Shown piece by piece: positions 1,493-33,897 of a stretch of DNA of 40,905 bases (position 1 is its first letter; each line of letters opens with the position of its first letter). The translations under genes were made by a program, and so were the position numbers. The notes below the pieces were generated by a model that ran no database searches, was not told the origin of the DNA, and was given only the letters and a program-made list of their open reading frames with translations. Source of the DNA: an uncultured beta proteobacterium (GTDB taxonomy: Bacteria > Pseudomonadota > Gammaproteobacteria > Burkholderiales > Burkholderiaceae_C). Location of the stretch: NCBI GenBank assembly GCA_903832285.1, contig CAILAY010000080.1:1-40905 (forward strand). Direction: 5' to 3'.

Positions 1493-1992
1493 GGCAACTC
1501 GGTGGCAGTAACGTCTTGGCTCTGGAAGCGTGTGGCGATGAAACGTTTGACGCCGTGGTGTGACGGGAACAACCTGCGCTGCATCATTGGGTTGGCCTAC
1601 CTCAAGAACCAAAACCGAGCGCCACAGATCCGGGGCAATCGACTTTTGTCAATTGAGCCGCCGATATAAATAGTCGTGAAAGTAATGAGAAACCTTCTTG
1701 ACAACTGACTTTTAACGTCAAACACTCCGCCTAGTTCTTAAAGTTGGAACTGGAGCCAGTCGGTAGAAGCGCTTCTCGCGGAGGAAGCCTATCGGTTCTT
1801 TAGGAAGGTAGCGATGAATGCACTTCTTGGCGGTTTGGTTGCCACTCTTTCCGTCCTTCGCTCGGGTAGTCAGCACGTTTCGACATGGTCTTTAGCCGTT
1901 GAACGAATTGTCCAGAACCACGCGCTGAAATGGCCCACAGCCGTGACATCACCGCGACCTGCAGACCGGGCCCAATCACTTCAGGAGACACC
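1493..1992. other. Intergenic region, about 500 bases
   Basis: No convincing long gene. A TTGACA at 1698-1703 could be a -35 box, but the -10 at the right spacing is poor. A 63-codon frame starts at ATG 1814 behind AGGAAGG (about 1802-1808) and overlaps the start of the next gene at 2005. Its product resembles nothing I know and I do not call it a gene. The region is less GC-rich than its flanks. Confidence 0.4.
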
Positions 1993-2832
1993 ATGGCAAA
2001 AATGACCTCAGCACCCCGGTCCAAAACCAAGACGGCAAGCCCGCCAGCAACGCAGGCGGATGCACCGGTGAAGATCTGCTTCGAGCGCATCATCCCCGAC
2101 GAGATGGACCATGAGCACGATATCCGCCGCAATGTGCGGCAGATGATCACGGAATCGCGTGGCGGCACCAAGAGCCTCAGCGCCGATGACATGGGGGCAA
2201 TTGCCCGCATGGCCGTGGTCAACACCAAGAAGTGGCCTGCCGGCACCACGCTGCGCTGCCGATTTCTGGACGGTAGCCCCAAGATGCGAAGCAAGGTCAA
2301 GGCCGTGGCGCTGGAGTGGCAGGCGCTTGCCAACATCAAGCTCAAGTTCGTCACCAGCGGCGCGGCCGAAATCCGCATCTCGTTTTTCGCCGACGCCGGT
2401 TCCTGGTCGGCCGTGGGCCGCGACTGCCTCAACACCAGTTACTTCCCACTTCATCAACCCACCATGAACTATGGCTGGCTGCGCGACAACACCAACGACC
2501 AGGAGTACCACCGCGTGGTCACTCATGAGTTTGGCCATGCGCTAGGCTGTATCCACGAGCACCAGCAACCCAAGTTCGACCGCAAGTGGGACGTGCCCAA
2601 GGTGATGAAGTACTTCTCCGGTCCACCGAACTACTGGGACGCCGCCTCGATCAAGAGCAACGTGCTCGAGAAGTACTCGCCCCGGGGAATTTCGGCCACC
2701 AAGTTCGACCCCAAGTCCATCATGCTTTACGCCTTTGACGGTGCGCTGTTCGCCGACGGAAAGGGTCCGACCAACGAGAATACCAACGTGTCGAACCTGG
2801 ACGTCACGATGATCAAGAAGATGTACCCCTGA
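1993..2832 (+). CDS. Astacin-like metzincin metalloprotease
   Basis: A 279-residue protein containing the full metzincin zinc signature HEFGHALGCIHEH (HExxHxxGxxH) and, about 75 residues later, a Met-turn SIMLYAF. This places it with astacin/M12-like peptidases and their bacterial relatives. The start is ATG 1993 behind AGGAGA; an upstream in-frame extension to 1930 lacks a ribosome site. No signal peptide is visible: the N-terminus is basic and Ala/Pro/Thr-rich. The protein is either cytoplasmic or exported by a route without a cleavable signal. It stands alone, with spacers on both sides. Domain confidence is high; the target is unknown. Confidence 0.8.
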   Translation: MAKMTSAPRSKTKTASPPATQADAPVKICFERIIPDEMDHEHDIRRNVRQMITESRGGTKSLSADDMGAIARMAVVNTKKWPAGTTLRCRFLDGSPKMRSKVKAVALEWQALANIKLKFVTSGAAEIRISFFADAGSWSAVGRDCLNTSYFPLHQPTMNYGWLRDNTNDQEYHRVVTHEFGHALGCIHEHQQPKFDRKWDVPKVMKYFSGPPNYWDAASIKSNVLEKYSPRGISATKFDPKSIMLYAFDGALFADGKGPTNENTNVSNLDVTMIKKMYP

Positions 2833-3620: not shown

Positions 3621-3634
3621 GGATTGATCAATCC
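3621..3634. promoter_or_regulatory. Palindromic candidate activator site (UAS)
   Basis: GGATTGATCAATCC is a perfect 14-base palindrome. Its TTGATCAA core resembles the inverted-repeat sites bound by XylR/DmpR-type activators. It lies about 145 bases upstream of the candidate sigma-54 promoter, a usual distance for an enhancer-like site, and a DmpR-like activator is encoded at 12508-14250. The palindrome is seen; its role is inferred. Confidence 0.4.
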
Positions 3635-3779: not shown

Positions 3780-3795
3780 TGGCACGCGCCATGCG
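3780..3795 (+). promoter_or_regulatory. Candidate sigma-54 (-24/-12) promoter
   Basis: TGGCAC-GCGCC-ATGCG matches the -24 element TGGCAC exactly and keeps the conserved GC of the -12 element at correct spacing, but the -12 is ATGCG rather than TTGCA/T. It is the best such match in the spacer and lies about 80 bases before the first gene of the operon. Confidence 0.4.
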
Positions 3796-3875: not shown

Positions 3876-5711
3876 ATGAAATTCCCAGTCCCGCACGACG
3901 TCAAGGCCAAGACCATTCCCGGCACCGAAGGCTGGGAGCGCATGTACCCGTACCAGTACCAGTTCGTCACCGACGACCCGGTGCGCAACCAGTACGAGAA
4001 GGAAACATTCTGGTTCTACGACGCACTGCACTACCCCGAGCCTCTGTACCCGTTCGACACGATCTGGGACGAGGCCTGGTACCTGGCGCTGTCGCAGTTC
4101 AACAACCGCATCTTCATGGTGCCGCCGGTGCGCGGCGTGGACCACCGCATCATCAACGGTTACGTATATATCTCGCCGGTGCCGGTGAAGGACCCGGCCG
4201 AAATCGGCGCGCGCGTTCCGCACTTCATGGAGCGCGCCGGCCACTACTACAAGAACTGGGACGCGCTGGAGGCCAAGTGGAAGGTGAAGATGGAAGCCAC
4301 GATTCGCGAACTCGAGGCGCTGCAGATCCCCAAGCTGGCCGACATGGAGGACATTTCGGTGGTGATGGACGCCCTGGGCGAGTCCAAGGGCTACCACCTG
4401 CTGAAGAACTACGACGACCTGATCAACCTGGGGATCAAGTGCTGGCAGTATCACTTCGAGTTCCTGAACCTGGGCTACGCGGCCTACGTGTTCTTTCTGG
4501 ACTTCGTGCAAAAGCAGTTCCCCAGCATTCCGGCGCAGCGCGTGACGCAGATGATCTCGGGTATCGACGTCATCATGTACCGCCCCGACGAGGAGCTCAA
4601 GGGCCTGGCCAGAAAGGCGATCGAGCTGGGCGTGGACGCTCTCGTGACGTCCAGCCCCGAATGGACCGTGGTCGAGGCCGCGCTCAAGGCCGACGCCAAG
4701 GGAGTGCAATGGCTGACCTCGCTGAACCTGTCGCGCGAGCCCTGGTTCAACGTCTCCACCGGCACCGGCTGGTTCCACCACGACCGCTCCTGGAACGACC
4801 AGATGAACGTGCCGCTGTCGGGCATCAACACCTACATCGGAAAGCTCAAGCAGGGAGTCAACATTGAGCGCCCCACGGCCAAGGTCTGCGCCGAGCGCGA
4901 CCGCATCACGGCCGAGTACCGCGACCTGATCGAGAACGAGGCCGACCGGCTGCAGTTCGACGAGCTGCTGGGCTGCGCCAAGACCGTTTTCCCGTACGTG
5001 GAGAACCATTTGTTCTACGTCGAGCACTGGTTCCACTCGGTGTTCTGGAACAAGATGCGCGAGGTCGGCGCAGTGATGCAGGAGCATGGCGTCATCAAGG
5101 AAGTGGAGGACGTGTGGCTGCTGCGCCGCGACGAGATCAAGAGCGCGCTGTGGGACATCGTCACGGCCTGGGCCACGGGCGTGACGCCGCGCGGCACCAA
5201 GACCTGGCCCGCGGAAATCGAATGGCGCAAGGGTGTGATGGGCAAGTTCAAGGAATGGAGCGCGCCGCCGGCCATAGGCGTGGCGCCCGAGGTGATACAG
5301 GAGCCCTTCACCATCGTGCTCTGGGGCGTCACGAACAAGTCGCTGGCCGACTGGGCCAGCGTGCAGGAGGTCAAGGACCCCGAGACCATCACCGAGCTCA
5401 AGGGCTTTGCCGGCAGTCCCGGTATCGCGCAGGGCCTGGCGCGCGTGTGCAAGACCGTCGCCGAGGTCGGTCAGTTGCAGGAGGGCGAGATCCTGGTCGC
5501 TCCAACGACCTCGCCGTCCTGGGCGCCTGCCTTCGCCAAGATCAGGGCCTGTGTCACTGACGTGGGCGGCGTCATGAGCCATGCGGCCATCGTGTGCCGC
5601 GAGTACGGAATGCCCGCGGTCGTGGGGACCGGGCATTCGACCAAGGTGATCCGCAGCGGGATGATGATCCGCGTGGACGGCTCCACCGGCTTGATCACGA
5701 TCCTGCGCTAG
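3876..5711 (+). CDS. ppsA: Phenylphosphate synthase subunit 1-like phosphotransferase (phosphohistidine subunit)
   Basis: A 611-residue protein resembling the catalytic subunit (protein 1) of phenylphosphate synthase from anaerobic phenol degraders, a relative of the central, phosphohistidine part of PEP synthase. The swivelling-domain signature GGVMSHAAIV...YGMPAVVGTG is at the C-terminus, with the phospho-acceptor histidine at residue 569. From memory, the active histidine of the Thauera aromatica protein has the same number; this should be checked. The large N-terminal part (1-470) would bind the phenolic substrate. In the known system this subunit passes the phosphoryl group from phosphohistidine to phenol. 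It is the first gene of the operon, with AGGAGA before ATG, and is followed after nine bases by the ATP-binding partner. The gene name denotes the phenylphosphate synthase subunit, not PEP synthase. The actual substrate could be another phenolic. Confidence 0.85.
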   Translation: MKFPVPHDVKAKTIPGTEGWERMYPYQYQFVTDDPVRNQYEKETFWFYDALHYPEPLYPFDTIWDEAWYLALSQFNNRIFMVPPVRGVDHRIINGYVYISPVPVKDPAEIGARVPHFMERAGHYYKNWDALEAKWKVKMEATIRELEALQIPKLADMEDISVVMDALGESKGYHLLKNYDDLINLGIKCWQYHFEFLNLGYAAYVFFLDFVQKQFPSIPAQRVTQMISGIDVIMYRPDEELKGLARKAIELGVDALVTSSPEWTVVEAALKADAKGVQWLTSLNLSREPWFNVSTGTGWFHHDRSWNDQMNVPLSGINTYIGKLKQGVNIERPTAKVCAERDRITAEYRDLIENEADRLQFDELLGCAKTVFPYVENHLFYVEHWFHSVFWNKMREVGAVMQEHGVIKEVEDVWLLRRDEIKSALWDIVTAWATGVTPRGTKTWPAEIEWRKGVMGKFKEWSAPPAIGVAPEVIQEPFTIVLWGVTNKSLADWASVQEVKDPETITELKGFAGSPGIAQGLARVCKTVAEVGQLQEGEILVAPTTSPSWAPAFAKIRACVTDVGGVMSHAAIVCREYGMPAVVGTGHSTKVIRSGMMIRVDGSTGLITILR

Positions 5712-5720
5712 AGCACAGCC

Positions 5721-6842
5721 ATGAACCTTGCGGCAGACCTCATGCCTTCCTCCACGGCAACACTTGCGGCGAGCCCGCTGGTGTGCTGGCTGGAGGACTG
5801 CCGAAAGGATTCGGTGGCGCTGGTGGGCGGTAAGTGCTCCTCGCTGGGCGAACTGATGCACGCTGGCGTGCGCGTGCCGCCGGGCTTTGCCCTCACGACC
5901 GAGGGCTTTCGCCAGTTCATGCACGATTCAGGCGTGAGCAGCGCTGTGCAGTCGCTGCTCACCGGCGTCGACAGCGAAAACCTGGACGCGCTGGAAGAGA
6001 TCAGCGCTCAGATCCGCGCGCTGATCGAGTCGCGCGCCTTCTCCATCGAGATCGAGGACCAGGTGGCAGAGTGCTACCGCAAGCTGTCGCTGCGCTGTTG
6101 CATGGCTGCAGCGCCCGTGGCCGTGCGCTCCAGCGCCACGGCCGAGGACCTGCCGGGCGCGAGCTTTGCAGGGCAGCAGGACACCTATCTGTGGGTGCGC
6201 GGCGTGGACGAGGTGTTGCACCACATGCGCCGCTGCATCTCCAGCCTGTACACGGCGCGCGCCATCGCCTACCGCGCGAACAAGGGGTTTTCCGACGAAC
6301 AACTGGCCATCAGCGTGGGCGTGCAGAAGATGGCCAAATCCTTCACCGCCGGCGTGATGTTCACGTTGCACCCGGGCAACGGCGACCGATCCGTGATCGT
6401 GATCGACTCCAACTTCGGTTTTGGCGAATCCGTGGTTTCGGGCGAGGTCACTCCGGATCATTTCGTCGTGAACAAGATCACGCTGGACATCATCGACCGC
6501 GTCATTTCGCAAAAGCTGATCTGCTACACCGTGGACACCAGGACGCAGGTTTCGCGCGTCATGGACACGCCGTTCGAGCGGCAGAACGTGCAGTCAATCA
6601 TCGACGACGAAATCACCGAGCTGGCCTGGATGGGAAAGCAGATCGAAAAACACTACAGCTGTCCCATGGACATCGAGTGGGCCATCGACAAGGACCTGCC
6701 CGCCGGCGGAAACATCTTCATCCTTCAGGCAAGGCCCGAAACGGTCTGGAGCAAGAAGCCGCAGAACCTGAACGCAAAGCCTGCGGGGTCCGCCATGGAT
6801 TACATCCTGAGCGGCATGCTCACGGGCCGGCGCGTGAGCTAG
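5721..6842 (+). CDS. ppsB: Phenylphosphate synthase subunit 2-like, ATP-binding (PEP synthase N-terminal domain)
   Basis: A 373-residue protein equal to the N-terminal nucleotide-binding part of PEP synthase/PPDK. Recognisable segments are VGGKCSSLGEL, VRSSATAEDLPGASFAGQQ, the FGFGE segment, and near the end MDIEWAID...IFILQARPET, the ATP-grasp metal-binding region. In phenylphosphate synthase this subunit uses ATP to phosphorylate the histidine of subunit 1, releasing AMP and phosphate. The start is ATG 5721; ATG 5742 is an alternative, and neither has a strong ribosome site, so translational coupling to the gene nine bases upstream is likely. The split into separate ATP and phosphohistidine subunits is diagnostic of phenylphosphate synthases against one-chain PEP synthases. 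Confidence 0.85.
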   Translation: MNLAADLMPSSTATLAASPLVCWLEDCRKDSVALVGGKCSSLGELMHAGVRVPPGFALTTEGFRQFMHDSGVSSAVQSLLTGVDSENLDALEEISAQIRALIESRAFSIEIEDQVAECYRKLSLRCCMAAAPVAVRSSATAEDLPGASFAGQQDTYLWVRGVDEVLHHMRRCISSLYTARAIAYRANKGFSDEQLAISVGVQKMAKSFTAGVMFTLHPGNGDRSVIVIDSNFGFGESVVSGEVTPDHFVVNKITLDIIDRVISQKLICYTVDTRTQVSRVMDTPFERQNVQSIIDDEITELAWMGKQIEKHYSCPMDIEWAIDKDLPAGGNIFILQARPETVWSKKPQNLNAKPAGSAMDYILSGMLTGRRVS

Positions 6843-6901
6843 GCCGGTCCGACCATTCGTCATTCACCCCGGCTTCCAACGATTTTTTAACAGGAGAAAC
6901 C

Positions 6902-8413
6902 ATGAACGCACCCAAGGACGCAGCCCCGATCGATGACCTGCGCAGCTACATCGCAGCGCTCGATGCCGCCGGGCAACTGCACCGCGTCAAGACCGAGGTT
7001 GACTGGAAGTTCGAGCTGTGCCACGTCTCCAAGGTGAACGAGGAACAGAAGGGCCCGGCCCTGCTGTACGAGAACGTCAAGGGCTACGACATACCGGTGT
7101 TCACCAGCGCGTTCACGACCTCGCAGCGGCTGGCGATCGCGCTGGAGCAGGACCCCTCGCTCTCCATGAGCCAGCTGTCCAAGAAGTGGATGGAGCTCAC
7201 GACCAAGAAGATGGTCAAGCCCGTCGTTGTGGACAATCCGCCGGTGCTGCAAAACATCCTCACGGGCGACGATGTGGACATAGAGAAATTCCCCTCTCCC
7301 TGGTTCTATCCCGACGACGGCGGTCGTTTCTTCGTGACCTCGGGCTTCCTCGTGACACAGGACCCCGACACCGGCTGGACCAACCTGGGAACCTACCGCG
7401 CGCAGGTGCTGGGCAAGGACATCCTGGGCTCGCAGATCATCAAGGGCAAGCACGGCGACATGCACATGAAGAAGTACCAGGAGCGCGGCGAACTCATGCC
7501 CGCAGCCTACGTGGTGGGATGCGACCCGGTGCTGTTCCTGGCCGCCTCGACCCTGGTGAGCGCGCAGACCGACGAGTACGACATCGCGGGCTCGCTGCGC
7601 GGTCGCCCCGTCCCGGTGTTCAAGTCAGAGTTGACGGGCCTGACGCTGCCGGCCAACGCCGAAATCATCGCCGAAGGCTTCATCGACCCGAACGAACTGA
7701 TGGAGGAAGGACCGTTTGGCGAGTACACGGGTTACTACTCGGGCAACAAGGGCAAGGACTACCCCAAACCCGTGCTGCGCATCAAGCGCATCCTGCACCG
7801 CAACAAGCCCGTCATGTGGTCCACGACCGTGGGTAAACCCATCAACGACATCCACATGATCCAGTCGCTGAACCGCACGGCCACGCTGTGGCACGACCTG
7901 GAGACCATGAAGGTTCCGGGCATACAGAGCGTGTACATCCCGCCCGAAGCCTGCGGTCGCTTCTGGGTCGTGGTCTCGGTCAAACAGATGTATCCGGGTC
8001 ACTCGAACCACGTCGGCAACGCCGTGATCGCCAGCACCACGGGGCACTACGGCGTCAAGGGCGTGATCACGGTGGACCACGACATCGAGGCCGACGACTG
8101 GGACCGCATCTGGTGGGCGCTGGCGACGCGCTTCGACCCCAAGCGCTCGGCGCAGATCATCGACCGCGGCCGCTCCACGCCGCTGGACCCGGGCCTGCCC
8201 ATAGACGCGCGCGACATCACCAGCCGCATCATCCTGGACGCCTGCACGCCATACGAATGGAAGGACAAGCCCAACGAGATCTTCATGGACCGCACGGTGC
8301 TGCAGAAGGTGTCGGACCGCTGGAACGAATACGGCTTCGGCGGACCCAGTCCTGTGGCCGGAATGATAGGCCGCCTGACGAGGCCCGAAGTCAAGGGCAA
8401 GGTCTCCAAGTAG
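6902..8413 (+). CDS. UbiD-family prenyl-FMN-dependent (de)carboxylase, phenylphosphate carboxylase-like
   Basis: A 503-residue UbiD-family protein. It carries the conserved EGPFGEYTGYY segment with the catalytic glutamate, a WTNLGTYR stretch near the metal and prenyl-FMN site, and a full-length C-terminal domain. UbiD enzymes use prenylated FMN made by UbiX, and a ubiX-like gene lies in the same operon. Beside a phenylphosphate synthase pair, the likely job is carboxylation of the phosphorylated phenolic to 4-hydroxybenzoate or a substituted relative. Known phenylphosphate carboxylase has two UbiD-like subunits plus small gamma and delta subunits; here there is only one UbiD protein. The start is ATG 6902 after AACAGGAGAAACC. 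It could instead work as a decarboxylase, since direction cannot be read from sequence. Confidence 0.8.
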   Translation: MNAPKDAAPIDDLRSYIAALDAAGQLHRVKTEVDWKFELCHVSKVNEEQKGPALLYENVKGYDIPVFTSAFTTSQRLAIALEQDPSLSMSQLSKKWMELTTKKMVKPVVVDNPPVLQNILTGDDVDIEKFPSPWFYPDDGGRFFVTSGFLVTQDPDTGWTNLGTYRAQVLGKDILGSQIIKGKHGDMHMKKYQERGELMPAAYVVGCDPVLFLAASTLVSAQTDEYDIAGSLRGRPVPVFKSELTGLTLPANAEIIAEGFIDPNELMEEGPFGEYTGYYSGNKGKDYPKPVLRIKRILHRNKPVMWSTTVGKPINDIHMIQSLNRTATLWHDLETMKVPGIQSVYIPPEACGRFWVVVSVKQMYPGHSNHVGNAVIASTTGHYGVKGVITVDHDIEADDWDRIWWALATRFDPKRSAQIIDRGRSTPLDPGLPIDARDITSRIILDACTPYEWKDKPNEIFMDRTVLQKVSDRWNEYGFGGPSPVAGMIGRLTRPEVKGKVSK

Positions 8414-8428
8414 TTCCCCTCCCAACCC

Positions 8429-10069
8429 ATGAAAGCGCTGCGCTACACCCAGGCCATGGTGGACGAATTCGTCCGCGATGGCTACTGGACCGATGAAACC
8501 TTCTACGACTCGTACGAGCGCAACGCGCGCACGATCGGCGACAAGGAGGCGCTGGTGGACTCCAGGCACCGCGTCACCTGGCGTCAGGCCAGGGATCTGG
8601 TGGACGCCATCGCCAGCGCCTGGGTGGCCGCCGGGATACCCAGGAGCGCGCGCGTCATCATCCAGGCGCCCAACAGCGTCTACGGGTTTCTGGCTCGCGC
8701 CGCGGCAGAGCGCGCGGGACTGATCTCGCTCACGGCATTTGCCACGCTGCGTCAGAACGAACTCGAAGACATGCTGGAGAAGACACAGGCCGAGGTGGCC
8801 GTGATCCCCTCGATCTTTCGCGGCTTCGACTACCTGGCGATGTACCAGGACCTGATGACGCGCTTTCCCTCGGTGCGCAGCCTCTACCTGTTCGACGACG
8901 TGGTGCCAGCCGATGCGCCGCCCGGGACGCGCTCGCTGACGCGAACGGCTCAGCAGCAGCTGGGTCAGGTCGACCGCGCTGCGCTGGACGCGCGCCGCTT
9001 CGACCCCTTCTTCGACGTGGCACTTCTGACCACGACTTCGGGAACGACAGGACTGCCCAAGCTGGTCGAGTGGCCGCTGGCGCCCAGGGTCTGCACGTCC
9101 AAGGGACGCATCGCCCTGTGGGAGCTGACCCAGGACGACATCACCATGGCGATCGCGCCGCACGCGGGTGGCGCCGCCGGAACGCTGACCTACTTTGCCG
9201 CACCGCTGTGCGGCGCCAAGACCGTGATGCTGGAGGACTTCGACCCGGAACTTGCGCTGCAGACGATAGAGCGCGAAAAGGTCACGGCCATCGGCGTCGT
9301 TCCCACGCACTTGGTGCGCATGCTGGAGAAGAACGTGGAGAAGTACGACCTGTCGTCGCTGCGCTTCATCCGCTCCGCCGGCGGCTACCTGTCGCCCCAA
9401 CTGGCGCAGGAAGCCGAGGCGCGTTTCGGGGCGGTGATCACGTCGGACCTGGGCACACAGGACAAGGGCTCGGTCAGCGGCTGCCGCGTGAGCGACCCGG
9501 GCGAGCTGCGCCGCCTCACCGTGGGGCAGATGCTGCCTGGCAACAAAGTCAAGCTGCTGGGACCCGACGGAATCGAAGTTCCCCTCAACGAACCCGGCGT
9601 GCTCTGGTTTCGCGGCCCGCACTCTCCCGCGGGCTATTACCGGGACCCTGCCATGACGGCCGAGGTGTTCGACGCGCAGGGCTGGTGCACCACCGAGGAC
9701 GTGGTCAAGTTCGACCAGGGCTGCCTGTGGATCCTGGGCCGGCAAAAGGACGTCATCATCCGCGGCGGGCAGAACATCTATCCGGCCGAAGTGGAGGGAC
9801 TGATGAACGAACACCCCAGCGTCGCGGCCGTGGCCGTGGTTGCCATGCCCGACGCGCAATACGGCGAGCGCGCCTGCGCCTTCGTCGTGCTGCGAAGGGA
9901 CAAGTCGCTGAGCCTGGACAAAGTCAGAACATTTCTTGCGAGCAAGAACGTCGCCAAGTTCAAGTGGCCCGAGCGGATCGAACTCGTGGAGCGCATGCCC
10001 ACGGTGGGCGACTCGGGCAAGGTGGACAAAAAGGCGCTGCGATCGCTGGTCGCGCCTCAGGCGGCCTGA
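8429..10069 (+). CDS. Aryl-AMP/CoA ligase (DhbE-like), predicted hydroxybenzoate-CoA ligase
   Basis: A 546-residue member of the ANL adenylating family. Visible motifs are TTSGTTGLPK (P-loop, near residue 200), the TEDV motif, GRQKDVIIRGGQNIYPAEVE (hinge region) and the catalytic lysine near the end in GKVDKKAL. The N-terminus (YTQAMVDEFVRDGYWTDETF) resembles 2,3-dihydroxybenzoate-AMP ligases such as DhbE more than classical benzoate-CoA ligases. In this operon it most likely activates the carboxylation product, a hydroxybenzoate, to its CoA thioester; release as an acyl-AMP to a carrier is less likely, as no carrier gene is present. It starts 16 bases after the UbiD gene. Confidence 0.8.
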   Translation: MKALRYTQAMVDEFVRDGYWTDETFYDSYERNARTIGDKEALVDSRHRVTWRQARDLVDAIASAWVAAGIPRSARVIIQAPNSVYGFLARAAAERAGLISLTAFATLRQNELEDMLEKTQAEVAVIPSIFRGFDYLAMYQDLMTRFPSVRSLYLFDDVVPADAPPGTRSLTRTAQQQLGQVDRAALDARRFDPFFDVALLTTTSGTTGLPKLVEWPLAPRVCTSKGRIALWELTQDDITMAIAPHAGGAAGTLTYFAAPLCGAKTVMLEDFDPELALQTIEREKVTAIGVVPTHLVRMLEKNVEKYDLSSLRFIRSAGGYLSPQLAQEAEARFGAVITSDLGTQDKGSVSGCRVSDPGELRRLTVGQMLPGNKVKLLGPDGIEVPLNEPGVLWFRGPHSPAGYYRDPAMTAEVFDAQGWCTTEDVVKFDQGCLWILGRQKDVIIRGGQNIYPAEVEGLMNEHPSVAAVAVVAMPDAQYGERACAFVVLRRDKSLSLDKVRTFLASKNVAKFKWPERIELVERMPTVGDSGKVDKKALRSLVAPQAA

Positions 10070-10106
10070 TGGGCGATGCACGCGTGAGAGCACAGGAGAA
10101 TCTGCC

Positions 10107-10547
10107 ATGATGGTGCGCAAATGGATGCAGGCCAATCCGATGACGATTCCCAGCGACACGCTGGTGTCGGATGCCAAGAGGCTGCTATCCGAGCACAATC
10201 TGCACGCGCTGCCCGTGGTGGACCAGGGCCATTTGCGCGGCCTTGTGACGCGCGCCAACATGCTGCGCATCGGTCAGTTCGTGCTGCGCACTCAGGACCC
10301 CGACGAGTTCAACTTCTTCGTCACGCGGCTGCGAGTCCGCGACGTGATGGTGCGCAACCCGGCTACCGTGTCGGTTGATGACACAATGCAGGACTGCCTG
10401 CGCCGTGGCCGAGAACTCATGGTGGCCCAGTTTCCGGTGATGGATGGCCAGCAGGTGGTGGGCATCATCACCGCGAACGAGATCTTCCAACTGGCCGCGC
10501 ACTGTCTGAGCCGATGGCAGGAACATGCCCAGCCCGAAACAATTTGA
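10107..10547 (+). CDS. ppsC: Tandem CBS-domain protein, phenylphosphate synthase subunit 3-like
   Basis: A 146-residue protein made almost wholly of two CBS domains: about residues 1-60 (VRKWMQANPMTIPSDT..DAKRLL) and 75-140 (VRDVMVRNPATVSVDDT...FPVMDGQQVVGIITANEI). In the Thauera system the third phenylphosphate synthase subunit is a CBS protein of about 24 kDa that stimulates the other two. This protein is clearly shorter, roughly 16 kDa, lacking any extra domain. CBS pairs usually sense adenine nucleotides, which would suit an ATP-to-AMP phosphotransferase. The start is ATG 10107 behind CAGGAGA. The symbol rests on context. Confidence 0.7.
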   Translation: MMVRKWMQANPMTIPSDTLVSDAKRLLSEHNLHALPVVDQGHLRGLVTRANMLRIGQFVLRTQDPDEFNFFVTRLRVRDVMVRNPATVSVDDTMQDCLRRGRELMVAQFPVMDGQQVVGIITANEIFQLAAHCLSRWQEHAQPETI

Positions 10548-10558
10548 CCCAACCCTTT

Positions 10559-11167
10559 ATGAACGACAACAAGAAGCTGCCACTGGTGCTGGCCATCACC
10601 GGCGCCACCGGCGTGATCTACGGCGTGGAAATGCTGCGCGTGCTGCGCGAGTTGGGGCAGGAGACGCATCTGATCCTGAGCGAGGCCGCGGGCATGAATT
10701 TGGGGATCGAGACCGAATACTCGATCGAGGACGTCAAGGCCATGGCCAGCGTGGTGTACAACAACAAGGACGTGGGCGCTGCTGTGGCCAGCGGATCCTT
10801 TCGCACGCGCGGCATGATCGTCGCACCCTGCACCATCAAGACCCTGTCGGCCATCGCCAACTCCTTCACCACGAACCTGGTGATTCGCGCTGCCGACGTG
10901 ACGCTCAAGGAACGCCGCCCGCTGGTGCTGATGGTGCGCGAGACGCCGCTGCACAAGGGCCATCTGGAGCTGATGACTCGGGTTGCCGACTATGGCGGAA
11001 TCATCCTGCCACCCATGCCTGCGTTCTACCACAGGCCGCAAACCGTGATGGACATCGTGCACCAGAGCCTGGGCAAGGCGCTGGACCAGGTGGGCATCGA
11101 GCACCAGCTGTTCGAGCGCTGGACCGGCAAGGATCGCGGCCGCCATAGCGACAAGGGAAGACAGTGA
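10559..11167 (+). CDS. ubiX: UbiX-family flavin prenyltransferase
   Basis: A 202-residue flavoprotein of the UbiX/Pad1 family: N-terminal AITGATGVIYGVEML, the SGSFRTRGMIVAPC segment with the typical CTIKTLSAIA continuation, and RETPLHKGHLELM near residue 140. It prenylates FMN with dimethylallyl phosphate to supply the UbiD cofactor. Its place in the same operon suggests a dedicated partner for the UbiD protein at 6902-8413. ATG 10559 is chosen because family proteins begin only a few residues before the AITGATG strand; a frame extension to 10514 overlaps the CBS gene. The stop overlaps the next start (GTGA). Confidence 0.85.
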   Translation: MNDNKKLPLVLAITGATGVIYGVEMLRVLRELGQETHLILSEAAGMNLGIETEYSIEDVKAMASVVYNNKDVGAAVASGSFRTRGMIVAPCTIKTLSAIANSFTTNLVIRAADVTLKERRPLVLMVRETPLHKGHLELMTRVADYGGIILPPMPAFYHRPQTVMDIVHQSLGKALDQVGIEHQLFERWTGKDRGRHSDKGRQ

Positions 11168-11988
11168 CCGAATTGCGCTGGCTGGATTGCGCACCGCACC
11201 CAGACCGGCAGCGCCGACCCATGCGAGCGCCCGAGGGCACAGTGGTCTACGCCGTAGGCGACATCCATGGCAGGCACGACCTGCTGTCGCGCCTGCTGCA
11301 GGGGATTGAGCAGGACTGCATGCAACGCCTGTGCGCACGAGCGGTCGTCGTCTACCTGGGCGACTACCTCAGCCGCGGCGAGGACTCGCGCGCCGTGATC
11401 GACAAGGTCATGACCTGGCGGCCGCAGACCGCAGGCGTGATCCAGATCGTCGCACTCAAGGGCAACCACGAAGACCTTGCGCTGCGCTATCTGCAGGGCG
11501 AAATGGAAGCGGGCCGGCACTGGTTCGACTACCAGGGACTCAGCGCGCTGGCGCATTACGGCGTTGTCGCGCCCAACCCGCAGGCACGCGACGAGGCCTC
11601 GCTCCTGTCGCTGCGGGATCTTTTCGCCCAGTCCCTGCCGCCGCCGCATCTGGCATTCCTGCAATCACTCTCGGTGAGCCACGACGAGCAGGACTATCAC
11701 TTCGTGCACGCCGGCGTGCGCCCGGGCGTTGCGCTTTCCGAACAGAGTGCGCACGATCAGATCTGGATCCGTCGCAGCTTCCTGGAATCCGAGGTAGAAC
11801 ATGGGGCCATCGTCGTGCACGGCCACAGCATCGCAGCGCTGCCGCAGGTGCGCTGCAACCGCATCGGCATCGACACCGGCGCCTACGCCAGCGGCGTGCT
11901 GACCTGCCTGGTGCTCGATGGAAGCGAGCGCGCTTTTCTGCAGGCCGTGGGCGAGGCGCGCGTCGCGGCAAACGTCGATCAGGGCTGA
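11164..11988 (+). CDS. PPP-family metallophosphatase, last gene of the phenol-type operon
   Basis: A 274-residue calcineurin-like phosphoesterase with the PPP signature in order: GDIHGR (residues 33-38), GDYLSRGE (variant of GDYVDRG), GNHE, and C-terminal HAG and HGH histidines. It begins at GTG 11164, overlapping the ubiX stop by a GTGA junction, so it is translationally coupled to the aromatic operon. Such enzymes dephosphorylate proteins or small molecules with two metal ions. In context it might hydrolyse the aryl phosphate or act on the phosphorylated synthase. The classical phenylphosphate carboxylase delta subunit is a HAD-type phosphatase relative, and no such gene is seen here. The substrate is not readable from sequence. 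Confidence 0.75.
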   Translation: MTELRWLDCAPHPDRQRRPMRAPEGTVVYAVGDIHGRHDLLSRLLQGIEQDCMQRLCARAVVVYLGDYLSRGEDSRAVIDKVMTWRPQTAGVIQIVALKGNHEDLALRYLQGEMEAGRHWFDYQGLSALAHYGVVAPNPQARDEASLLSLRDLFAQSLPPPHLAFLQSLSVSHDEQDYHFVHAGVRPGVALSEQSAHDQIWIRRSFLESEVEHGAIVVHGHSIAALPQVRCNRIGIDTGAYASGVLTCLVLDGSERAFLQAVGEARVAANVDQG

Positions 11989-12449
11989 CGGCTCAGATCG
12001 AGTTCCTCGCGGTGCCCGAAGCCCAGCGCGTTGTCGATGAAGAACAGGCGGCGAGGCTCAACGCGGTACCAGCGCACCTTGGCCAGCGCCTGCACGATCA
12101 CGGCCGGCGCCTGCGCCAGCTTACCCACGACCGGGAACTTTTCGCCGTAGAGCCGCCGCGCACGCTGCTCAGCGTCGCCGCCGAGTTCGAGCACGGATCC
12201 TTCCATCTGCACGCCCTTGATGCCCGGCCAGTCGGCGTAATCGGCCTGTATCGTCACGGCGACCTGGGCGCTGTGCGCCAGATTCGCGCAGTGGCGGCTG
12301 CTGGGAGAAGAGAGGAACAGCAGGTTGCAACCGTCGTTCACGTAGAACACGGCGGCGGCCCAAATGCCTTCGGGCCCGTTCGAGGCCAGCGTGGCCACAT
12401 GGTGAGTCTGCAGGTGTTGCAGCACTCTGGCGGACAGAGTCGCGCTCAC
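11979..12449 (-). CDS. Pyridoxamine-5'-phosphate-oxidase-like flavin split-barrel protein
   Basis: A 156-residue protein with the N-terminal pattern of the FMN-binding split-barrel family (VLQHLQTHHVATLAS..PEGIWAAAVFY, then LLFLSSPSSRHCANL), similar to YhbP-type proteins. It may bind FMN, F420 or heme; the sequence does not decide. It is read convergently with the phosphatase gene, the two 3' ends overlapping by ten bases, so no terminator fits between them. The start is GTG 12449. A functional tie to the prenyl-FMN enzymes next door is only a thought. Confidence 0.65.
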   Translation of the reverse strand: MSATLSARVLQHLQTHHVATLASNGPEGIWAAAVFYVNDGCNLLFLSSPSSRHCANLAHSAQVAVTIQADYADWPGIKGVQMEGSVLELGGDAEQRARRLYGEKFPVVGKLAQAPAVIVQALAKVRWYRVEPRRLFFIDNALGFGHREELDLSRQP

Positions 12450-12507: not shown

Positions 12508-14250
12508 TCATGGTTGGATGGGCTTGGCTGGCGCCGCGCTGTCCCGCGAAAGCGGCTCTTCCTGCAGCCGGCGCAGGCGGTACGCCAGCTGCGGCCGGGT
12601 CACCCCCAGCATGCGCGCGGCCGAAGACAGGTTGCCGTGCGACTTGTCCACCGCCCTCTCCAACAGCATGGCTTCGACCTGATCGAGCGTCATGGTCCCG
12701 CCCAGAACGGCTTCGCACAGCTCGCTCCCGACGTCGTGCACCGGCTGCCTGAGGTCGCCGTGCGCGTCCAGCCCGAACTCGTCCGACGCGCGCTCATCGA
12801 TCGAGGAAAACATGTGGTGCACCTCAATGCGCGTGCCCACTGGCGCCAAGATCACGCCGCGCTCGATCATGTTCTGCAGTTCGCGGATGTTGCCCGGCCA
12901 GGCATAGGTCAGCAGCGCACGCTTGGCCTTGTCGGTGAAGCCGGCGATGCGCTTGCCGTGCAGGGCACAGTACTTCTCCAGGAACCCCTTGGCCAGCGGC
13001 GAAATGTCTTCCTTGCGCTCGCGCAGCGGTGGAATCTTGATCTGGTAGGCGTTCAGGCGGTAGTACAGGTCGGAGCGGAACTTGCCCTCTTTCACCTTCA
13101 GGCGCAAATCCACGTTCGTGGCCGCGACGAGCCGCACGCTCACCTTGCGCACGGTCTGGCCGCCCACGCGCTCGATCTCGCCCTCCTGCAGGACGCGCAG
13201 CAGCTTCGCCTGCGCGGCCAGTGGCAGGTCACCGATCTCGTCCAGGAACAGTGTGCCGCCGTTGGCGCGTTCGAACCTCCCCGCGCGCGAAGCCTGGGCC
13301 CCGGTGTAGGCGCCCTTCTCGACGCCGAACAGTTCGGCTTCCACCAGATCGGTCGGAATGGCCGCGCAATTGATCGCGACGAACGACGCCTTGGCGCGCG
13401 CACCGTGCTCGTGTAGCGTGCGTGCAAACACTTCCTTGCCCACTCCGGTTTCTCCCAGCAGCAGCACCGTGATCTCGTTGTGGGTGGCGTGGCGCAGCAA
13501 CTCGTACGCGGCGCGAAACGCAGGGGAATTTCCCACCATGTCCGCAGGCAGCCCCTTCTTTTCGGCGATGCTCGTCCTGAGCTCCACCACCTGCGTCTGC
13601 AGGGCTATCAATTGCTCGGCGATGGACTCGCGGTTGAAGAAATGCGCGTATTCGCTGGCGTCTTCCCACTCATCGACCGGCTTGCCGATGATGCGGCAAT
13701 GGTCGTTGCCCATGCCAGCGCACTCCACTTCCTTGTACAGGATGGCTCGCCCCATGAAGGCCGATGTGTATCCGCAGGCGTAGCCGATCTGGGTCCAGCA
13801 TACGGGCTCGGTATGCACTCCGAAAAAGTGCCTGTGCCACTGGCCCTCCCAGGAGTTCTCCCACAGGAACTCGCCATAGAAGTTGCCCGCCGAGCGATCC
13901 AGTTCGAGCCTGATTTGCGTGACCTTGACGATGCCCTCGAGGGTGTGCAGTTGCGGCCCCGTCATGAAGGCCTCGATGTCGCTCAGATCCTGGGCCATGG
14001 TGCGGGCGAGTTCGGCGTCGCGCACGCCCGACTCGTAGCCCATGCGCGTGAGCAGGCCCTGTGCGCGCGCCATGCCCAGCGTATCGATCAGTTCCTTGCG
14101 TAGCAGCGCCTGCGCCTGTGCGTGGATCAGCAGCATGCGATGCTCGTGCAGCCAGATCTGACCCGTTTGCGCGCAAAAGTGGACCTGAGAACGCAGATCG
14201 CTGTTGCTCGCCTCAGCCTGCGCGTTCGCGACGATTCGAAGTTTGGTCAT
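12508..14250 (-). CDS. XylR/DmpR/PoxR-like sigma-54 activator sensing phenolics
   Basis: A 580-residue activator. Residues about 20-190 are the XylR_N plus V4R sensor: C151, E174, C177 and C185 keep the spacing of the zinc site in phenol sensors such as MopR and DmpR. The AAA+ domain follows: Walker A GETGVGKE (266-273), sigma-54 contact loop GAYTGA (313-318, a common variant of GAFTGA) and Walker B TLFLDE. A Fis-type helix-turn-helix ends the protein (LSSAARMLGVTRPQLAYRL). ATG 14250 has AGAAGGG upstream; longer frames beyond it lack homology. It most likely activates the operon at 3876-11988 when a phenolic inducer binds. Which phenolic it prefers cannot be told. Confidence 0.85.
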   Translation of the reverse strand: MTKLRIVANAQAEASNSDLRSQVHFCAQTGQIWLHEHRMLLIHAQAQALLRKELIDTLGMARAQGLLTRMGYESGVRDAELARTMAQDLSDIEAFMTGPQLHTLEGIVKVTQIRLELDRSAGNFYGEFLWENSWEGQWHRHFFGVHTEPVCWTQIGYACGYTSAFMGRAILYKEVECAGMGNDHCRIIGKPVDEWEDASEYAHFFNRESIAEQLIALQTQVVELRTSIAEKKGLPADMVGNSPAFRAAYELLRHATHNEITVLLLGETGVGKEVFARTLHEHGARAKASFVAINCAAIPTDLVEAELFGVEKGAYTGAQASRAGRFERANGGTLFLDEIGDLPLAAQAKLLRVLQEGEIERVGGQTVRKVSVRLVAATNVDLRLKVKEGKFRSDLYYRLNAYQIKIPPLRERKEDISPLAKGFLEKYCALHGKRIAGFTDKAKRALLTYAWPGNIRELQNMIERGVILAPVGTRIEVHHMFSSIDERASDEFGLDAHGDLRQPVHDVGSELCEAVLGGTMTLDQVEAMLLERAVDKSHGNLSSAARMLGVTRPQLAYRLRRLQEEPLSRDSAAPAKPIQP

Positions 14251-18901: not shown

Positions 18902-19936
18902 ATGTATCAATGCACTTGCTCTATCGTTCCCAAGGATGTTTTGGAGCGAATCGCCGGGGATAAGAAGCTCGACCCCGAGCTTCGCAGAGCCGCGGCTGAA
19001 TCGGCTCGACTTTCTGACGTATTGCGGCTGCTGCGCACCCAGCATGGCGCACTGACCACTCTGGCCCGCTCCAGCGGTGCGCACCTGCTGGACCTGGCAA
19101 CGGCACCCAGCGTGACCGTGTATGACTGCAGGCACACGCAGACCCTGCCGGGCGCGCCGATTGGAAGCCCGGCCACATCCAAGGATGGCACTGTCAAACG
19201 TGCTTTCAAGGAAACCAGTTCGGTCGTCAAGTTCTACAAGACGATCTTCGGGCGCAATTCGGTGGATAACGCTGGCATGACGCTGATGTCGTCGATTCAC
19301 TACGGCAAGAGCTACAACAATGCCATGTGGACCGGCTCAGAAATGCTGTACGGTGATGGCGACGGCAAGCTGTTCATCGATTTCACCGATGGAAACGACG
19401 TGATCGGTCATGAGTTGACGCACGGCGTCACGCAGCACAGCCTGCAACTGTCCTATACCGGGGATGCGGGCGGACTCAACGAAAGCATGTCGGACTGCTT
19501 TGGATCGATGTTCAGGCAGTGGGAAGCGGGGCAGGATGTGAAGGCTGCCGACTGGCTCATCGGGTCAGACATCATGGGACCTGTCGCCAAGAAAAAGGGC
19601 TATACCTGCCTGCGCAACATGGCCAACCCGGCTGACAAGGCCGCTCTGGCTGCGCAACCCACCCAGTATTCTCAAATCACGCCGGGTATGGACCCGCACT
19701 ATTCCAGCGGACCACCCAATCTCGCCTTCACTACCGCATGCCGGACACTGGGTGGCAAAAGTTGGGAAAAGATGGGCCAAGTCTGGTATGCGGTGCTGAC
19801 CACTTCGGGCGCCAACCCCGGTATGACCATGCCGCAGTTTGCCGCCCGAGCCCGGCAAGTAGCCCATCAGTTGTATCCCAAGTTGCCGGCCGTGGCCGCT
19901 GCGGTGGATGCCGGTTGGAAGAAGATTGGAATATGA
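18902..19936 (+). CDS. Protealysin-like M4 (thermolysin family) metalloprotease
   Basis: A 344-residue M4 peptidase. The zinc site is HELTH at residues 170-174, with the third ligand E194 in GGLNESMSD; the catalytic histidine is likely in the HYSSGPPNLAF segment. There is no signal peptide and the pro-region is short (about 50 residues beginning CTCSIVPKDVLERIAGD), as in protealysin rather than secreted thermolysins with long propeptides. Protealysin-type enzymes mature by self-cleavage and are kept in check by a partner inhibitor, encoded by the next gene, whose start overlaps this stop (ATGA). Confidence 0.88.
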   Translation: MYQCTCSIVPKDVLERIAGDKKLDPELRRAAAESARLSDVLRLLRTQHGALTTLARSSGAHLLDLATAPSVTVYDCRHTQTLPGAPIGSPATSKDGTVKRAFKETSSVVKFYKTIFGRNSVDNAGMTLMSSIHYGKSYNNAMWTGSEMLYGDGDGKLFIDFTDGNDVIGHELTHGVTQHSLQLSYTGDAGGLNESMSDCFGSMFRQWEAGQDVKAADWLIGSDIMGPVAKKKGYTCLRNMANPADKAALAAQPTQYSQITPGMDPHYSSGPPNLAFTTACRTLGGKSWEKMGQVWYAVLTTSGANPGMTMPQFAARARQVAHQLYPKLPAVAAAVDAGWKKIGI

Positions 19937-28585: not shown

Positions 28586-29641
28586 ATGTCTAAACCCACA
28601 TCCAGTTCGACACCCTGCATTGGCATCATCGCCAATCCGGTCTCGGCGCGCGATATTCGGCGCGTCGTGGCCAATGCAAGCAACCTGCAAACCACCGACA
28701 GGGTCAGCATGTTGCTGCGCATGATGGGTGCTGCGGGCAGCATGGGCGTAGGCCGTGTGCTGATGATGCCTGACAAGGGCGGAGTCAGCGCCATGTTGAT
28801 TCGCAGCCTGACGCGCGAACTGCAACAGCACCACAGTTTTCCACAACTGGAGTTTCTTGACCTGGTGCCAACCACCACGGTGCAGGACACCTTTGCCGCC
28901 GCTCGCATGATGCAGGACGCCGGCGTGAAGGCCATCGTCGTGCTGGGCGGCGATGGCACCCACCGCGCGGTTGTGCGCGAGTGCCGCGGCATTCCAATCG
29001 TCGGCATGTCCACCGGCACCAACAACGCCTTTCCGGAACTGCGCGAACCCACCATCACCGGGCTGGCAGTGGGTCTCTACGCCACCGGGCAGATTGACTC
29101 GACTCATGCGGTGGTGCAAAACAAACTGCTGGAAGTTTGCATCAACGGCGGCGAGCGCCGCGACATTGCGCTGGTCGATGCGGTGATCTCCACCGACCGC
29201 TTCATTGGCGCGCGTGCCCTTTGGAAGATGGAGAGTCTGACCGCCGTCTATCTGAGCTTTGCGGAGCCGCAAGCGCTGGGCCTGTCCTCCATTGGCGGCC
29301 TGCTACAGCCGCTGGGGCGGCGCGATCCGGGCGGTCTGGCCATTCACCTGAGCGATGACCCTGCCTTGCGTCGCCTGCAACTGCTCGCCCCCATCGCGCC
29401 CGGCATGGTTCGCCCGGTGGGCATTCGCCATTGGGAAACCATGCCTGCGGACCAGCCTTTCGCGGTGACCCCGAGAGCCGGTGTCGTGGCGCTGGATGGC
29501 GAACGTGAACTGACTTTCGATTCCCGCGACAGCGTGCAGATCACGCTGCGCGAAAACGCGTTCCCTACGGTGGACGTGATCGCCTGCATGCGGTTCGCTG
29601 CTTGCAACGGTCTGTTTCGCCTTTCTTCCCCGCAAACCTAA
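28586..29641 (+). CDS. acoX: AcoX, ATP-NAD kinase-like protein of acetoin catabolism
   Basis: A 351-residue protein with the NAD kinase/diacylglycerol kinase fold: IIANPVSARDIRR at the start, VLGGDGTHRAV (nucleotide GGDG motif) near 115 and MSTGTNNAFP near 140. AcoX is the first gene of acetoin operons in Cupriavidus and relatives; its exact reaction is not settled. ATG 28586 lies just before the conserved IIANP strand and directly downstream of the sigma-54 promoter; the longer frame beginning at 28355 would run through the promoter. The ribosome site is weak. Confidence 0.85.
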   Translation: MSKPTSSSTPCIGIIANPVSARDIRRVVANASNLQTTDRVSMLLRMMGAAGSMGVGRVLMMPDKGGVSAMLIRSLTRELQQHHSFPQLEFLDLVPTTTVQDTFAAARMMQDAGVKAIVVLGGDGTHRAVVRECRGIPIVGMSTGTNNAFPELREPTITGLAVGLYATGQIDSTHAVVQNKLLEVCINGGERRDIALVDAVISTDRFIGARALWKMESLTAVYLSFAEPQALGLSSIGGLLQPLGRRDPGGLAIHLSDDPALRRLQLLAPIAPGMVRPVGIRHWETMPADQPFAVTPRAGVVALDGERELTFDSRDSVQITLRENAFPTVDVIACMRFAACNGLFRLSSPQT

Positions 29642-29655
29642 ACAGGAGACCCACG

Positions 29656-30642: not shown

Positions 30643-30674
30643 AACGAATAATCCAACAAAACAAGGAGCACATG

Positions 30675-33557: not shown

Positions 33558-33575
33558 ACCTAACCGGAGCACTCT

Positions 33576-33884: not shown

Positions 33885-33897
33885 GTACCGCCAGGCG

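What the first reader, a model, noticed from the sequence alone, without database searches (positions are those of the whole stretch)
3876..11988. Compact phenylphosphate-type aromatic activation operon with a single UbiD and no gamma/delta carboxylase subunits
Seven tightly packed genes combine ATP-dependent phenol phosphorylation (two PEP-synthase-like halves plus a CBS protein), one UbiD enzyme, UbiX, an aryl ligase and a phosphatase. Classical phenol-degrading clusters have two UbiD subunits plus small gamma and delta proteins. This is a reduced or rewired version that might carboxylate a different phenolic or need only one UbiD chain.
Basis: partly seen in the sequence, partly recalled or inferred. 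Interest (0 to 1): 0.8.

Follow-up and report, generated by a model that had tools for sequence, protein, structure and literature searches.

The report
One-chain phenol carboxylation operon
This bacterial operon encodes a predicted phenol-phosphorylating enzyme but only one UbiD-type carboxylase chain instead of the usual four-part enzyme, and that single chain is predicted to add carbon dioxide to the phosphorylated phenol; the same layout recurs in dozens of genomes in which the other parts were not found, so it would show how few parts this reaction needs.

Summary
In detail: seven packed genes at 3876-11988 encode PpsA, PpsB, one UbiD, an AMP-forming ligase, a CBS protein, UbiX and a calcineurin-like phosphoesterase. 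Searches found no ppcA, ppcC or ppcD in the genome (94% complete); its only other UbiD is the ubiquinone type. It carries 4-hydroxybenzoyl-CoA reductase and bzd-type benzoyl-CoA reductase genes, so phenol to 4-hydroxybenzoate to benzoyl-CoA fits. The UbiD is not PpcB itself but its sister clade. Of 80 PpsA loci, 44 have this layout and 27 the classical one. Over family cut-offs, alpha and delta occur in 7 of 7 classical genomes tried (gamma in 5, two just under) against 1 of 43 single-UbiD genomes, and that one holds a separate classical cluster. PpsA does not separate the layouts, and both share a phenol-type sensor pocket and a sigma-54-like promoter: the carboxylase module is swapped behind one phenol switch. 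In Desulfobacterota the related module is UbiD-ligase-UPF0261, and the four-subunit type nests among single-UbiD modules. Whether one UbiD chain suffices, and what removes the phosphate, is untested; a related aniline enzyme needed two UbiD chains in vitro. New variant of a known kind.

The parts
3780..3795 (+). sigma-54 promoter-like site (TGGCACGCGCCATGCG), starting 96 bases before the PpsA start
   Evidence: Relaxed -24/-12 pattern upstream of PpsA in 40 of 43 single-UbiD loci (window included) and 25 of 27 classical loci, against 1.5 and 0.7 in shuffles. Within the window alone such matches are no more frequent than chance.
3623..3632 (.). ATTGATCAAT palindrome, possible upstream activator site of the XylR-type regulator
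   Evidence: Core upstream of PpsA in 14 of 43 single-UbiD and 10 of 27 classical loci, expected 0.3 each; sequence. That this is the XylR/DmpR-type site is recalled.
3876..5711 (+). PpsA, phenylphosphate synthase alpha-like, 611 aa, His569 kept
   Evidence: NF006152 1220 bits; PF00391; His569 invariant in 16 rows
5721..6842 (+). PpsB, phenylphosphate synthase beta-like (ATP-binding half), 373 aa
   Evidence: PF01326 378 bits
6902..8413 (+). single UbiD-family carboxylase, 503 aa, sister clade of PpcB; R166, E269, E274 kept
   Evidence: TIGR02724 573 bits; trees; residues
8429..10069 (+). AMP-forming aryl ligase, 546 aa, likely 4-hydroxybenzoate-CoA ligase
   Evidence: PF00501/PF13193; 56-67% identical to 29 ligases from neighbourhoods of single-UbiD genes in the phylum search, clade of 33 with support 100
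10107..10547 (+). two-CBS protein, short PpsC-like (146 aa)
   Evidence: PF00571; 146 aa also in L004-L006, most others 222-237 aa, exceptions L045 161 and L054 138
10559..11167 (+). UbiX-type flavin prenyltransferase (start codon not certain)
   Evidence: NF004685 and TIGR00421 over cut-off
11164..11988 (+). calcineurin-like phosphoesterase, 274 aa; possible stand-in for PpcD
   Evidence: PF00149; best solved relative Rhizobiales-like phosphatase 2, 30.5 bits; within 3.5 kb after UbiX in 13 of the 27 single-UbiD loci that could be read
11979..12449 (-). PNPOx-like flavin-fold protein next to the regulator
   Evidence: PF01243; beside the regulator in most loci
12508..14250 (-). XylR_N/V4R sigma-54 activator, phenol-sensor type (start at 14250 chosen by eye)
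   Evidence: NF041906 MobR 611 bits, under its cut-off of 999; CapR 537 bits; pocket residues

Best explanation
The operon encodes a predicted phenylphosphate synthase (PpsA, PpsB, a short CBS protein), one UbiD with a UbiX, an AMP-forming ligase and a phosphoesterase, and it likely turns phenol into 4-hydroxybenzoyl-CoA with the single UbiD doing the carboxylation that PpcA-PpcB-PpcC-PpcD do in Thauera and Aromatoleum. Predicted steps: (1) the XylR/V4R regulator would bind phenol and switch on the sigma-54-like promoter before ppsA; (2) PpsB would pass the diphosphoryl group of ATP to His569 of PpsA, which would make phenylphosphate, AMP and phosphate; (3) UbiX would make prenylated FMN; (4) the UbiD would bind phenylphosphate, or the phenolate formed from it, and add CO2 para to the oxygen, giving 4-hydroxybenzoate, the phosphate being lost either in the UbiD itself or through the phosphoesterase; (5) the ligase would make 4-hydroxybenzoyl-CoA, which the 4-hydroxybenzoyl-CoA reductase and bzd-type benzoyl-CoA reductase encoded on another contig would take into the benzoyl-CoA pathway. 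Shown: gene content, order, missing subunits within the limits of the assemblies, phylogeny, promoter-site and pocket conservation, presence of downstream genes. Inferred: every reaction, the substrate and the sufficiency of one UbiD chain. Step 4 is the weakest.
For: Gene content and order. Genome: no alpha, gamma or delta gene over cut-off, but hcrA and hcrB over cut-off, BzdN, BzdO, Had and Oah over cut-off and BoxB. Recurrence: 44 of 80 PpsA loci have PpsA-PpsB-UbiD with UbiD 84-95% identical; 27 of 80 are classical; 9 are unresolved. Whole genomes over cut-off: gamma 5 of 7 classical (2 more just under it) against 1 of 43 single-UbiD; alpha 7 of 7 against 1 of 43; delta 7 of 7 against 1 of 43; the one exception carries a separate, complete classical cluster. 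PpsA tree: the layouts interleave, 6 changes, all forced by starred branches. Sensor pocket: same 13-residue string in 30 of 39 single-UbiD and 16 of 27 classical regulators. Promoter site: 40 of 43 and 25 of 27. UbiD trees: one clade, sister to PpcB; Arg-Glu-Glu residues kept in 38 of 38. Ligase: kin of ligases in single-UbiD neighbourhoods of another phylum.
Against: No activity is measured. In Desulfatiglans anilini the related aniline carboxylase worked in vitro only when two UbiD-type chains were combined, and T. aromatica Ppc needs all four subunits for full activity (passages of PMC7500099), so one chain may not be enough; the ubiquinone-type UbiD could be a partner. The phosphoesterase is absent within 3.5 kb of UbiX in 14 of 27 readable single-UbiD loci, so it is no general replacement for delta. 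Under-cut-off hits exist: an alpha-like UbiD (341-361 bits, cut-off 565) in 3 of 43 single-UbiD genomes (those of L010, L033, L054), each beside an AMP-ligase and in L010's genome also beside a 32-bit gamma-like hit, and a delta-like gene (223 bits, cut-off 282; 59% identical to a PpcD) standing alone in L022's genome. One of 39 single-UbiD regulators (L059) has lost the His/Trp phenol anchor. The genomes may be incomplete; the window's is 94% complete.
Confidence: 0.65

Rival explanations
1. The pathway is phenol to 4-hydroxybenzoate as above, but the UbiD works with a second UbiD chain supplied from elsewhere (the ubiquinone-type UbiD or a gene missed in the assembly).
For: D. anilini aniline carboxylase needed two UbiD-type chains in vitro (PMC7500099, passages); T. 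aromatica uses two (PMC6114531, passages); the genome has a second UbiD at C109; 3 of 43 single-UbiD genomes have an alpha-like UbiD under the cut-off.
Against: The second UbiD passes the ubiquinone-type model, is 33% identical and lies on another contig. Alpha over the cut-off is absent in 42 of 43 single-UbiD genomes, too many for assembly gaps alone.
Confidence: 0.2
2. The operon phosphorylates and carboxylates another phenolic compound (a catechol, a cresol or the like) and the ligase takes that product.
For: The UbiD is only 53-55% identical to PpcB. The ligase's closest solved relatives are 2,3-dihydroxybenzoate- and salicylate-AMP ligases. Some related modules of the phylum search pair with PpsA-like kinases only 25-43% identical.
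Against: The sensor pocket is that of phenol sensors at 12 of 13 residues; PpsA and regulator are shared with classical clusters; the genome holds 4-hydroxybenzoyl-CoA reductase genes.
Confidence: 0.13
3. The operon is a decaying remnant of a classical phenol cluster that lost ppcA, ppcC and ppcD.
For: The CBS protein is short (146 aa) and UPF0261, present in most sister loci, is missing.
Against: All seven frames are open; the UbiD is in a different clade from PpcB; the layout is kept in 44 loci whose record titles fall in three phyla; the window's ligase subtype recurs in four other loci (L004-L007).
Confidence: 0.02

Closest known systems
Phenylphosphate synthase/carboxylase cluster of Thauera aromatica and Aromatoleum (PpsABC, PpcABCD)
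   Same: PpsA, PpsB, CBS subunit, UbiX, PheR-type regulator with a PNPOx-like neighbour, sigma-54-like promoter site, predicted product 4-hydroxybenzoate
   Different: No PpcA, PpcC, PpcD or orf7-like UbiD found; the UbiD is in the sister clade of PpcB; a ligase lies inside the operon; the regulator lies downstream of it
Desulfatiglans anilini phe and ani clusters and the Geobacter metallireducens phenol operon (one ppcB-like gene in the cluster)
   Same: PpsA/PpsB (or Pas) with one beta-type UbiD gene in the cluster; gamma reported missing (PMC6114531 and PMC7500099, passages)
   Different: In D. anilini alpha- and delta-like genes were assigned elsewhere in the genome; here none passes the cut-offs. 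The clade of their UbiD proteins was not determined: named sequences were not at hand
UPF0261 (Tm-1-like) proteins, PF06792/PF23189
   Same: Encoded between UbiD and the CBS gene in 32 of 44 single-UbiD loci
   Different: Not found in the window's genome; no function is known to me in this setting
MopR/CapR/PoxR/PheR phenol sensors
   Same: XylR_N, V4R and sigma-54 domains and the phenol pocket
   Different: Ser166 of MopR is Thr; gene placed downstream of the operon

Membership tests
Phenylphosphate carboxylase, four-subunit (PpcABCD) | beta subunit, PpcB (TIGR02724) | tested here: inconclusive
   Passes the model (573 against 469 bits), but proteins of three distinct clades pass it (one search hits in the tree); this UbiD lies in the sister clade of PpcB
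Phenylphosphate carboxylase, four-subunit (PpcABCD) | alpha subunit, PpcA (TIGR02723) | tested here: not met
   The genome's two UbiD proteins score 210 and 119 bits, cut-off 565; 1 of 43 sister genomes over the cut-off against 7 of 7 controls. The alpha model was not run over the whole window genome; the UbiD search was
Phenylphosphate carboxylase, four-subunit (PpcABCD) | gamma subunit, PpcC (TIGR02725) | tested here: not met
   No hit at E 1 in the genome
Phenylphosphate carboxylase, four-subunit (PpcABCD) | delta subunit, PpcD (TIGR02726) | tested here: not met
   Only a KdsC-type hit, 103 bits under a cut-off of 282
Phenylphosphate synthase (PpsABC) | PpsA with mobile domain and phosphohistidine | tested here: met
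   His569 named in a passage of PMC7500099
Phenylphosphate synthase (PpsABC) | separate ATP-binding PpsB and a CBS subunit PpsC | tested here: met
   PF01326 and two CBS domains; the CBS protein is shorter than usual
Phenylphosphate synthase (PpsABC) | phenol-dependent ATP to AMP conversion | not testable with these tools
   Needs expressed protein
UbiD family, prFMN-dependent | UbiD domains with the Arg-Glu-Glu catalytic residues, and a UbiX | tested here: met
   R166, E269, E274 kept in 38 of 38 rows (their role is recalled from Fdc1); model of mean pLDDT 76.8 matches UbiD structures; UbiX in the operon. Cofactor use itself is not tested
Phenol-sensing XylR/V4R regulators | MopR-type phenol pocket with anchoring His and Trp | tested here: met
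   12 of 13 residues listed in PMC10715001 section 10 identical, the exception being Thr for Ser166

The most novel reading that the evidence does not exclude
One UbiD chain with UbiX is a complete arylphosphate carboxylase. Such single-UbiD modules, built as UbiD-ligase-UPF0261, are the older and broader design in Betaproteobacteria and Desulfobacterota, and the textbook four-subunit PpcABCD is a later elaboration of one branch; both are swapped behind the same phenol sensor and phenylphosphate synthase.
Probability: 0.45. Interest if true: 0.8.

Novelty: new variant of a known kind. Interest (0 to 1): 0.63.

Why it matters
In the papers seen here phenylphosphate carboxylase and its aniline counterpart work with two to four different subunits, and the delta subunit is said to remove the phosphate. 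A natural version in which alpha, gamma and delta are not found, standing behind the same kinase and phenol sensor, is a ready-made test of which parts the chemistry needs, and a simpler candidate for fixing CO2 onto phenols. It also bears on how anaerobic phenol degradation is called in metagenomes: searches that require ppcA, ppcC or ppcD over their cut-offs would miss 42 of the 43 single-UbiD genomes examined here. The recurring UPF0261 gene gives a protein family without known function a concrete pathway to test.

Tried and rejected
Considered and rejected: missing ppc genes elsewhere in the genome; decay (layout kept in 44 loci); a chance ligase insertion (its kin stand in single-UbiD neighbourhoods of another phylum); the phosphoesterase as general PpcD replacement (absent in 14 of 27 readable single-UbiD loci). 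A guess that the ligase acts on salicylate or 2,3-dihydroxybenzoate was not adopted: the solved relatives point there, but its closest kin are the module ligases and the genome has 4-hydroxybenzoyl-CoA reductase genes. The UbiD model has low confidence in stretches 271-285 and 411-460, so no pocket was read from it. A histidine at 184 (38 of 38 single-UbiD rows; Arg in 12 of 12 PpcB, Leu in 12 of 12 PpcA; also His in 7pda) may be a metal ligand by analogy with Fdc1, which is recalled; the column labelled 'metalE' in that script is not to be trusted. A sigma-54 scan of the window alone was no better than chance; only the comparison across loci gave signal. The papers on T. aromatica itself (PMC438602, PMC94709) are not held, and the search for Ramlibacter lithotrophicus listed nothing on phenol.
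Full report
What is there. Seven co-directional genes at 3876-11988: PpsA (611 aa), PpsB (373), UbiD (503), an AMP-forming ligase (546), a two-CBS protein (146), UbiX and a calcineurin-like phosphoesterase (274). A PNPOx-like gene and a XylR_N/V4R sigma-54 activator follow on the other strand. Among the 66 other assigned loci in which both regulator and ppsA are seen, the regulator is upstream of ppsA in 64 and downstream, as in the window, only in L005 and L006.

The missing subunits were not found in the genome. The genome (4.42 Mb, 200 contigs, 94.35% complete, 3.18% contaminated) has one other UbiD, which passes the ubiquinone-type model (846 bits, cut-off 788) and scores 119 bits on the alpha model, cut-off 565. 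The gamma model has no hit at E 1. The delta model finds only a KdsC-type gene, 103 bits against a cut-off of 282, between KdsD-like and LptC genes.

The rest of the pathway is there in part. Contig C28 carries 4-hydroxybenzoyl-CoA reductase alpha (1172 bits, cut-off 995) and beta (429, cut-off 405), BzdN, BzdO, Had and Oah over their cut-offs, a benzoate-CoA ligase-family protein over its cut-off and a second ligase whose best model, HbdA, it does not pass, and BoxB. The small subunit of the 4-hydroxybenzoyl-CoA reductase and the other bzd subunits were not tested. So 4-hydroxybenzoate would have somewhere to go, anaerobically or by the Box route.

The layout is common. A scan of species genomes with a 16-row PpsA alignment kept the best 80 of 204 relatives. 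By tblastn layout, 44 have UbiD directly after PpsB (84-95% identical to the window's), 27 have the classical order PpsA-PpsB-CBS-PpcB-PpcD-PpcA-orf7-UbiX as far as their contigs reach, and 9 cannot be assigned (8 cut by contig ends, and L052, which has no UbiD hit). A PpcD-like gene is found in 26 of 27 classical loci and 0 of 44 single-UbiD loci (the exception, L064, is cut off).

Whole-genome controls. Fifty of these genomes were searched: those of 43 of the 44 single-UbiD loci (L044 shares a MAG with L023) and of 7 of the 27 classical ones. Gamma: 5 of 7 classical over the cut-off and the other 2 just under it (133 and 129 against 136 bits); 1 of 43 single-UbiD over it. Alpha: 7 of 7 against 1 of 43. 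Delta: 7 of 7 against 1 of 43. The exception each time is the genome of L058; the contig with these genes holds a complete separate classical cluster with its own regulator, PpsA and PpsB (L192). Results against: under the cut-offs, an alpha-like UbiD (341-361 bits, cut-off 565; 39-40% identical to a PpcA) lies beside an AMP-ligase gene in the genomes of L010, L033 and L054, in the first also beside a 32-bit gamma-like hit, and L022's genome has a lone delta-like gene (223 bits, cut-off 282; 59% identical to a PpcD). Most of the records are MAGs of unknown completeness.

Swapping behind one switch. In a PpsA tree of 71 rows the layouts interleave with 6 changes, all forced by starred branches. 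The regulator's phenol pocket, mapped by a constant offset of 9 on MopR (match ranges) and the residue list of PMC10715001 (section 10 read), agrees with MopR at 12 of 13 residues. The window's 13-residue string is found in 30 of 39 single-UbiD and 16 of 27 classical regulators; most of the others differ at one to three places, and one (L059) has lost the His/Trp anchor. A sigma-54-like site lies before ppsA in 40 of 43 single-UbiD loci including the window and 25 of 27 classical ones, against 1.5 and 0.7 expected from a simple shuffle of dinucleotide blocks. The two carboxylase modules therefore most likely serve the same substrate, phenol.

The UbiD clade. In a tree of 74 UbiD rows the 38 single-UbiD rows form one clade (95), sister to PpcB (97); PpcA and orf7 are far away. 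The Arg-Glu-Glu residues are kept in all 38. A search of 395 genomes of the phylum of G027 (the Syntrophaceae record of L039; called Desulfobacterota here by inference) found TIGR02724 over cut-off in 64. I fetched neighbourhoods of up to 8 kb on each side for 59 stretches; the 30 loci that the search itself returned are shorter than 4.5 kb. In the combined tree there are three clades: PpcB (29 rows, 99), the window's clade (35 rows, 96; 18 of the first scan's kind with the window, 17 from the phylum search) and a third (25 rows, 100). Among the phylum-search loci the window's clade has a ligase hit in 15 of 17, UPF0261 in 15 of 17, PpcA and PpcD in 0 of 17; the third clade has a ligase hit in 19 of 25, UPF0261 in 24 of 25, PpcA and PpcD in 0 of 25; the PpcB clade has PpcA and PpcD in 12 of 13 each. 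These counts see the flanks only, and contig ends cut some. With long rows dropped and the genome's own ubiquinone-type UbiD as outgroup, PpcB and the window's clade are sisters (99); holding the two single-UbiD clades together is rejected at p 0.013, and holding PpcB with the third clade at p 0.006. The groups were named after an earlier tree had been seen and the outgroup branch is long, so these p values are optimistic.

Ligase and UPF0261. Between UbiD and the CBS gene, 32 of 44 single-UbiD loci have a UPF0261 (Tm-1-like) gene, 4 (L004-L007) have the window's ligase, and 8 are cut off there (domains checked in L019 and L024). UPF0261 is in 0 of 27 classical loci, and the window's genome has none. 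The ligase is 56-67% identical to 29 ligases of the phylum-search loci, in a clade of 33 with support 100, so it is likely an old part of the module that most of the first-scan loci dropped, while the window's line kept or regained it and dropped UPF0261.

How it probably works is set out in Best explanation. The open step is the removal of phosphate. In T. aromatica the delta subunit does this, as reported in PMC6114531 (passages) and PMC7500099 (passages). Here the phosphoesterase is a candidate: its best solved relative is Rhizobiales-like phosphatase 2 (30.5 bits). But it is present in only 13 of the 27 single-UbiD loci that could be read. The alternative is that the UbiD itself expels phosphate.

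What is known. PMC6114531 (abstract and passages) reports one ppc-beta in the D. anilini phenol cluster, alpha- and delta-like genes elsewhere and no gamma. PMC7500099 (passages) reports that aniline carboxylation in vitro needed two UbiD chains and that G. metallireducens also lacks gamma. PMC5946492 (section 20) calls PpsAB and PpcB plus the UbiX-like PpcY the shared core of such operons. So a single UbiD gene inside such an operon is not new. I found no report of genome-wide absence of the partners, of the sister clade, of the module swap, or of UPF0261 in phenol clusters; the searches were made, in an open-licence library that lacks most subscription papers, and most of the papers listed were seen as listings only. 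Hence: new variant of a known kind.

Noticed in passing
L019:11278-12531 and 31 other single-UbiD loci: A UPF0261 (Tm-1-like) gene sits between UbiD and the CBS gene in 32 of 44 single-UbiD loci and is near UbiD in 39 of 42 related phylum-search loci; no function known to me.
   Followed up: partly
L058 and L192 (genome G036): One genome carries both a single-UbiD cluster and a complete classical cluster with its own regulator.
   Followed up: partly
L144 and L145: Clusters PpsB-UPF0261-ligase-PpsA(25-27% identical)-UbiD resemble the gene order described for the D. anilini aniline (ani) cluster.
   Followed up: no
L039 and L173 (genome G027): A Syntrophaceae record holds a cluster 76-93% identical to the betaproteobacterial type: recent transfer or contamination of the bin.
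   Followed up: no
L188, L190, L191: In three single-UbiD genomes a PpcA-like UbiD (39-40% identical) lies beside an AMP-ligase gene, away from the phenol cluster: perhaps another carboxylase.
   Followed up: partly
L052: PpsA-PpsB-CBS with UPF0261 but no UbiD hit in the stretch.
   Followed up: no
L023 and L044 (same MAG, JAPLQT): Two single-UbiD clusters in one genome.
   Followed up: no
window 29602-35985: By eye, an acetoin-dehydrogenase-like operon with an AcoR-like sigma-54 activator on the other strand.
   Followed up: no
window 1930-2832 and 18902-19936: By eye, two zinc metalloprotease-like genes (HExxH motifs).
   Followed up: no
window 10107-10547: The CBS protein is 146 aa here and in L004-L006 but 222-237 aa in most other loci: the C-terminal part is missing in this line.
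   Followed up: partly
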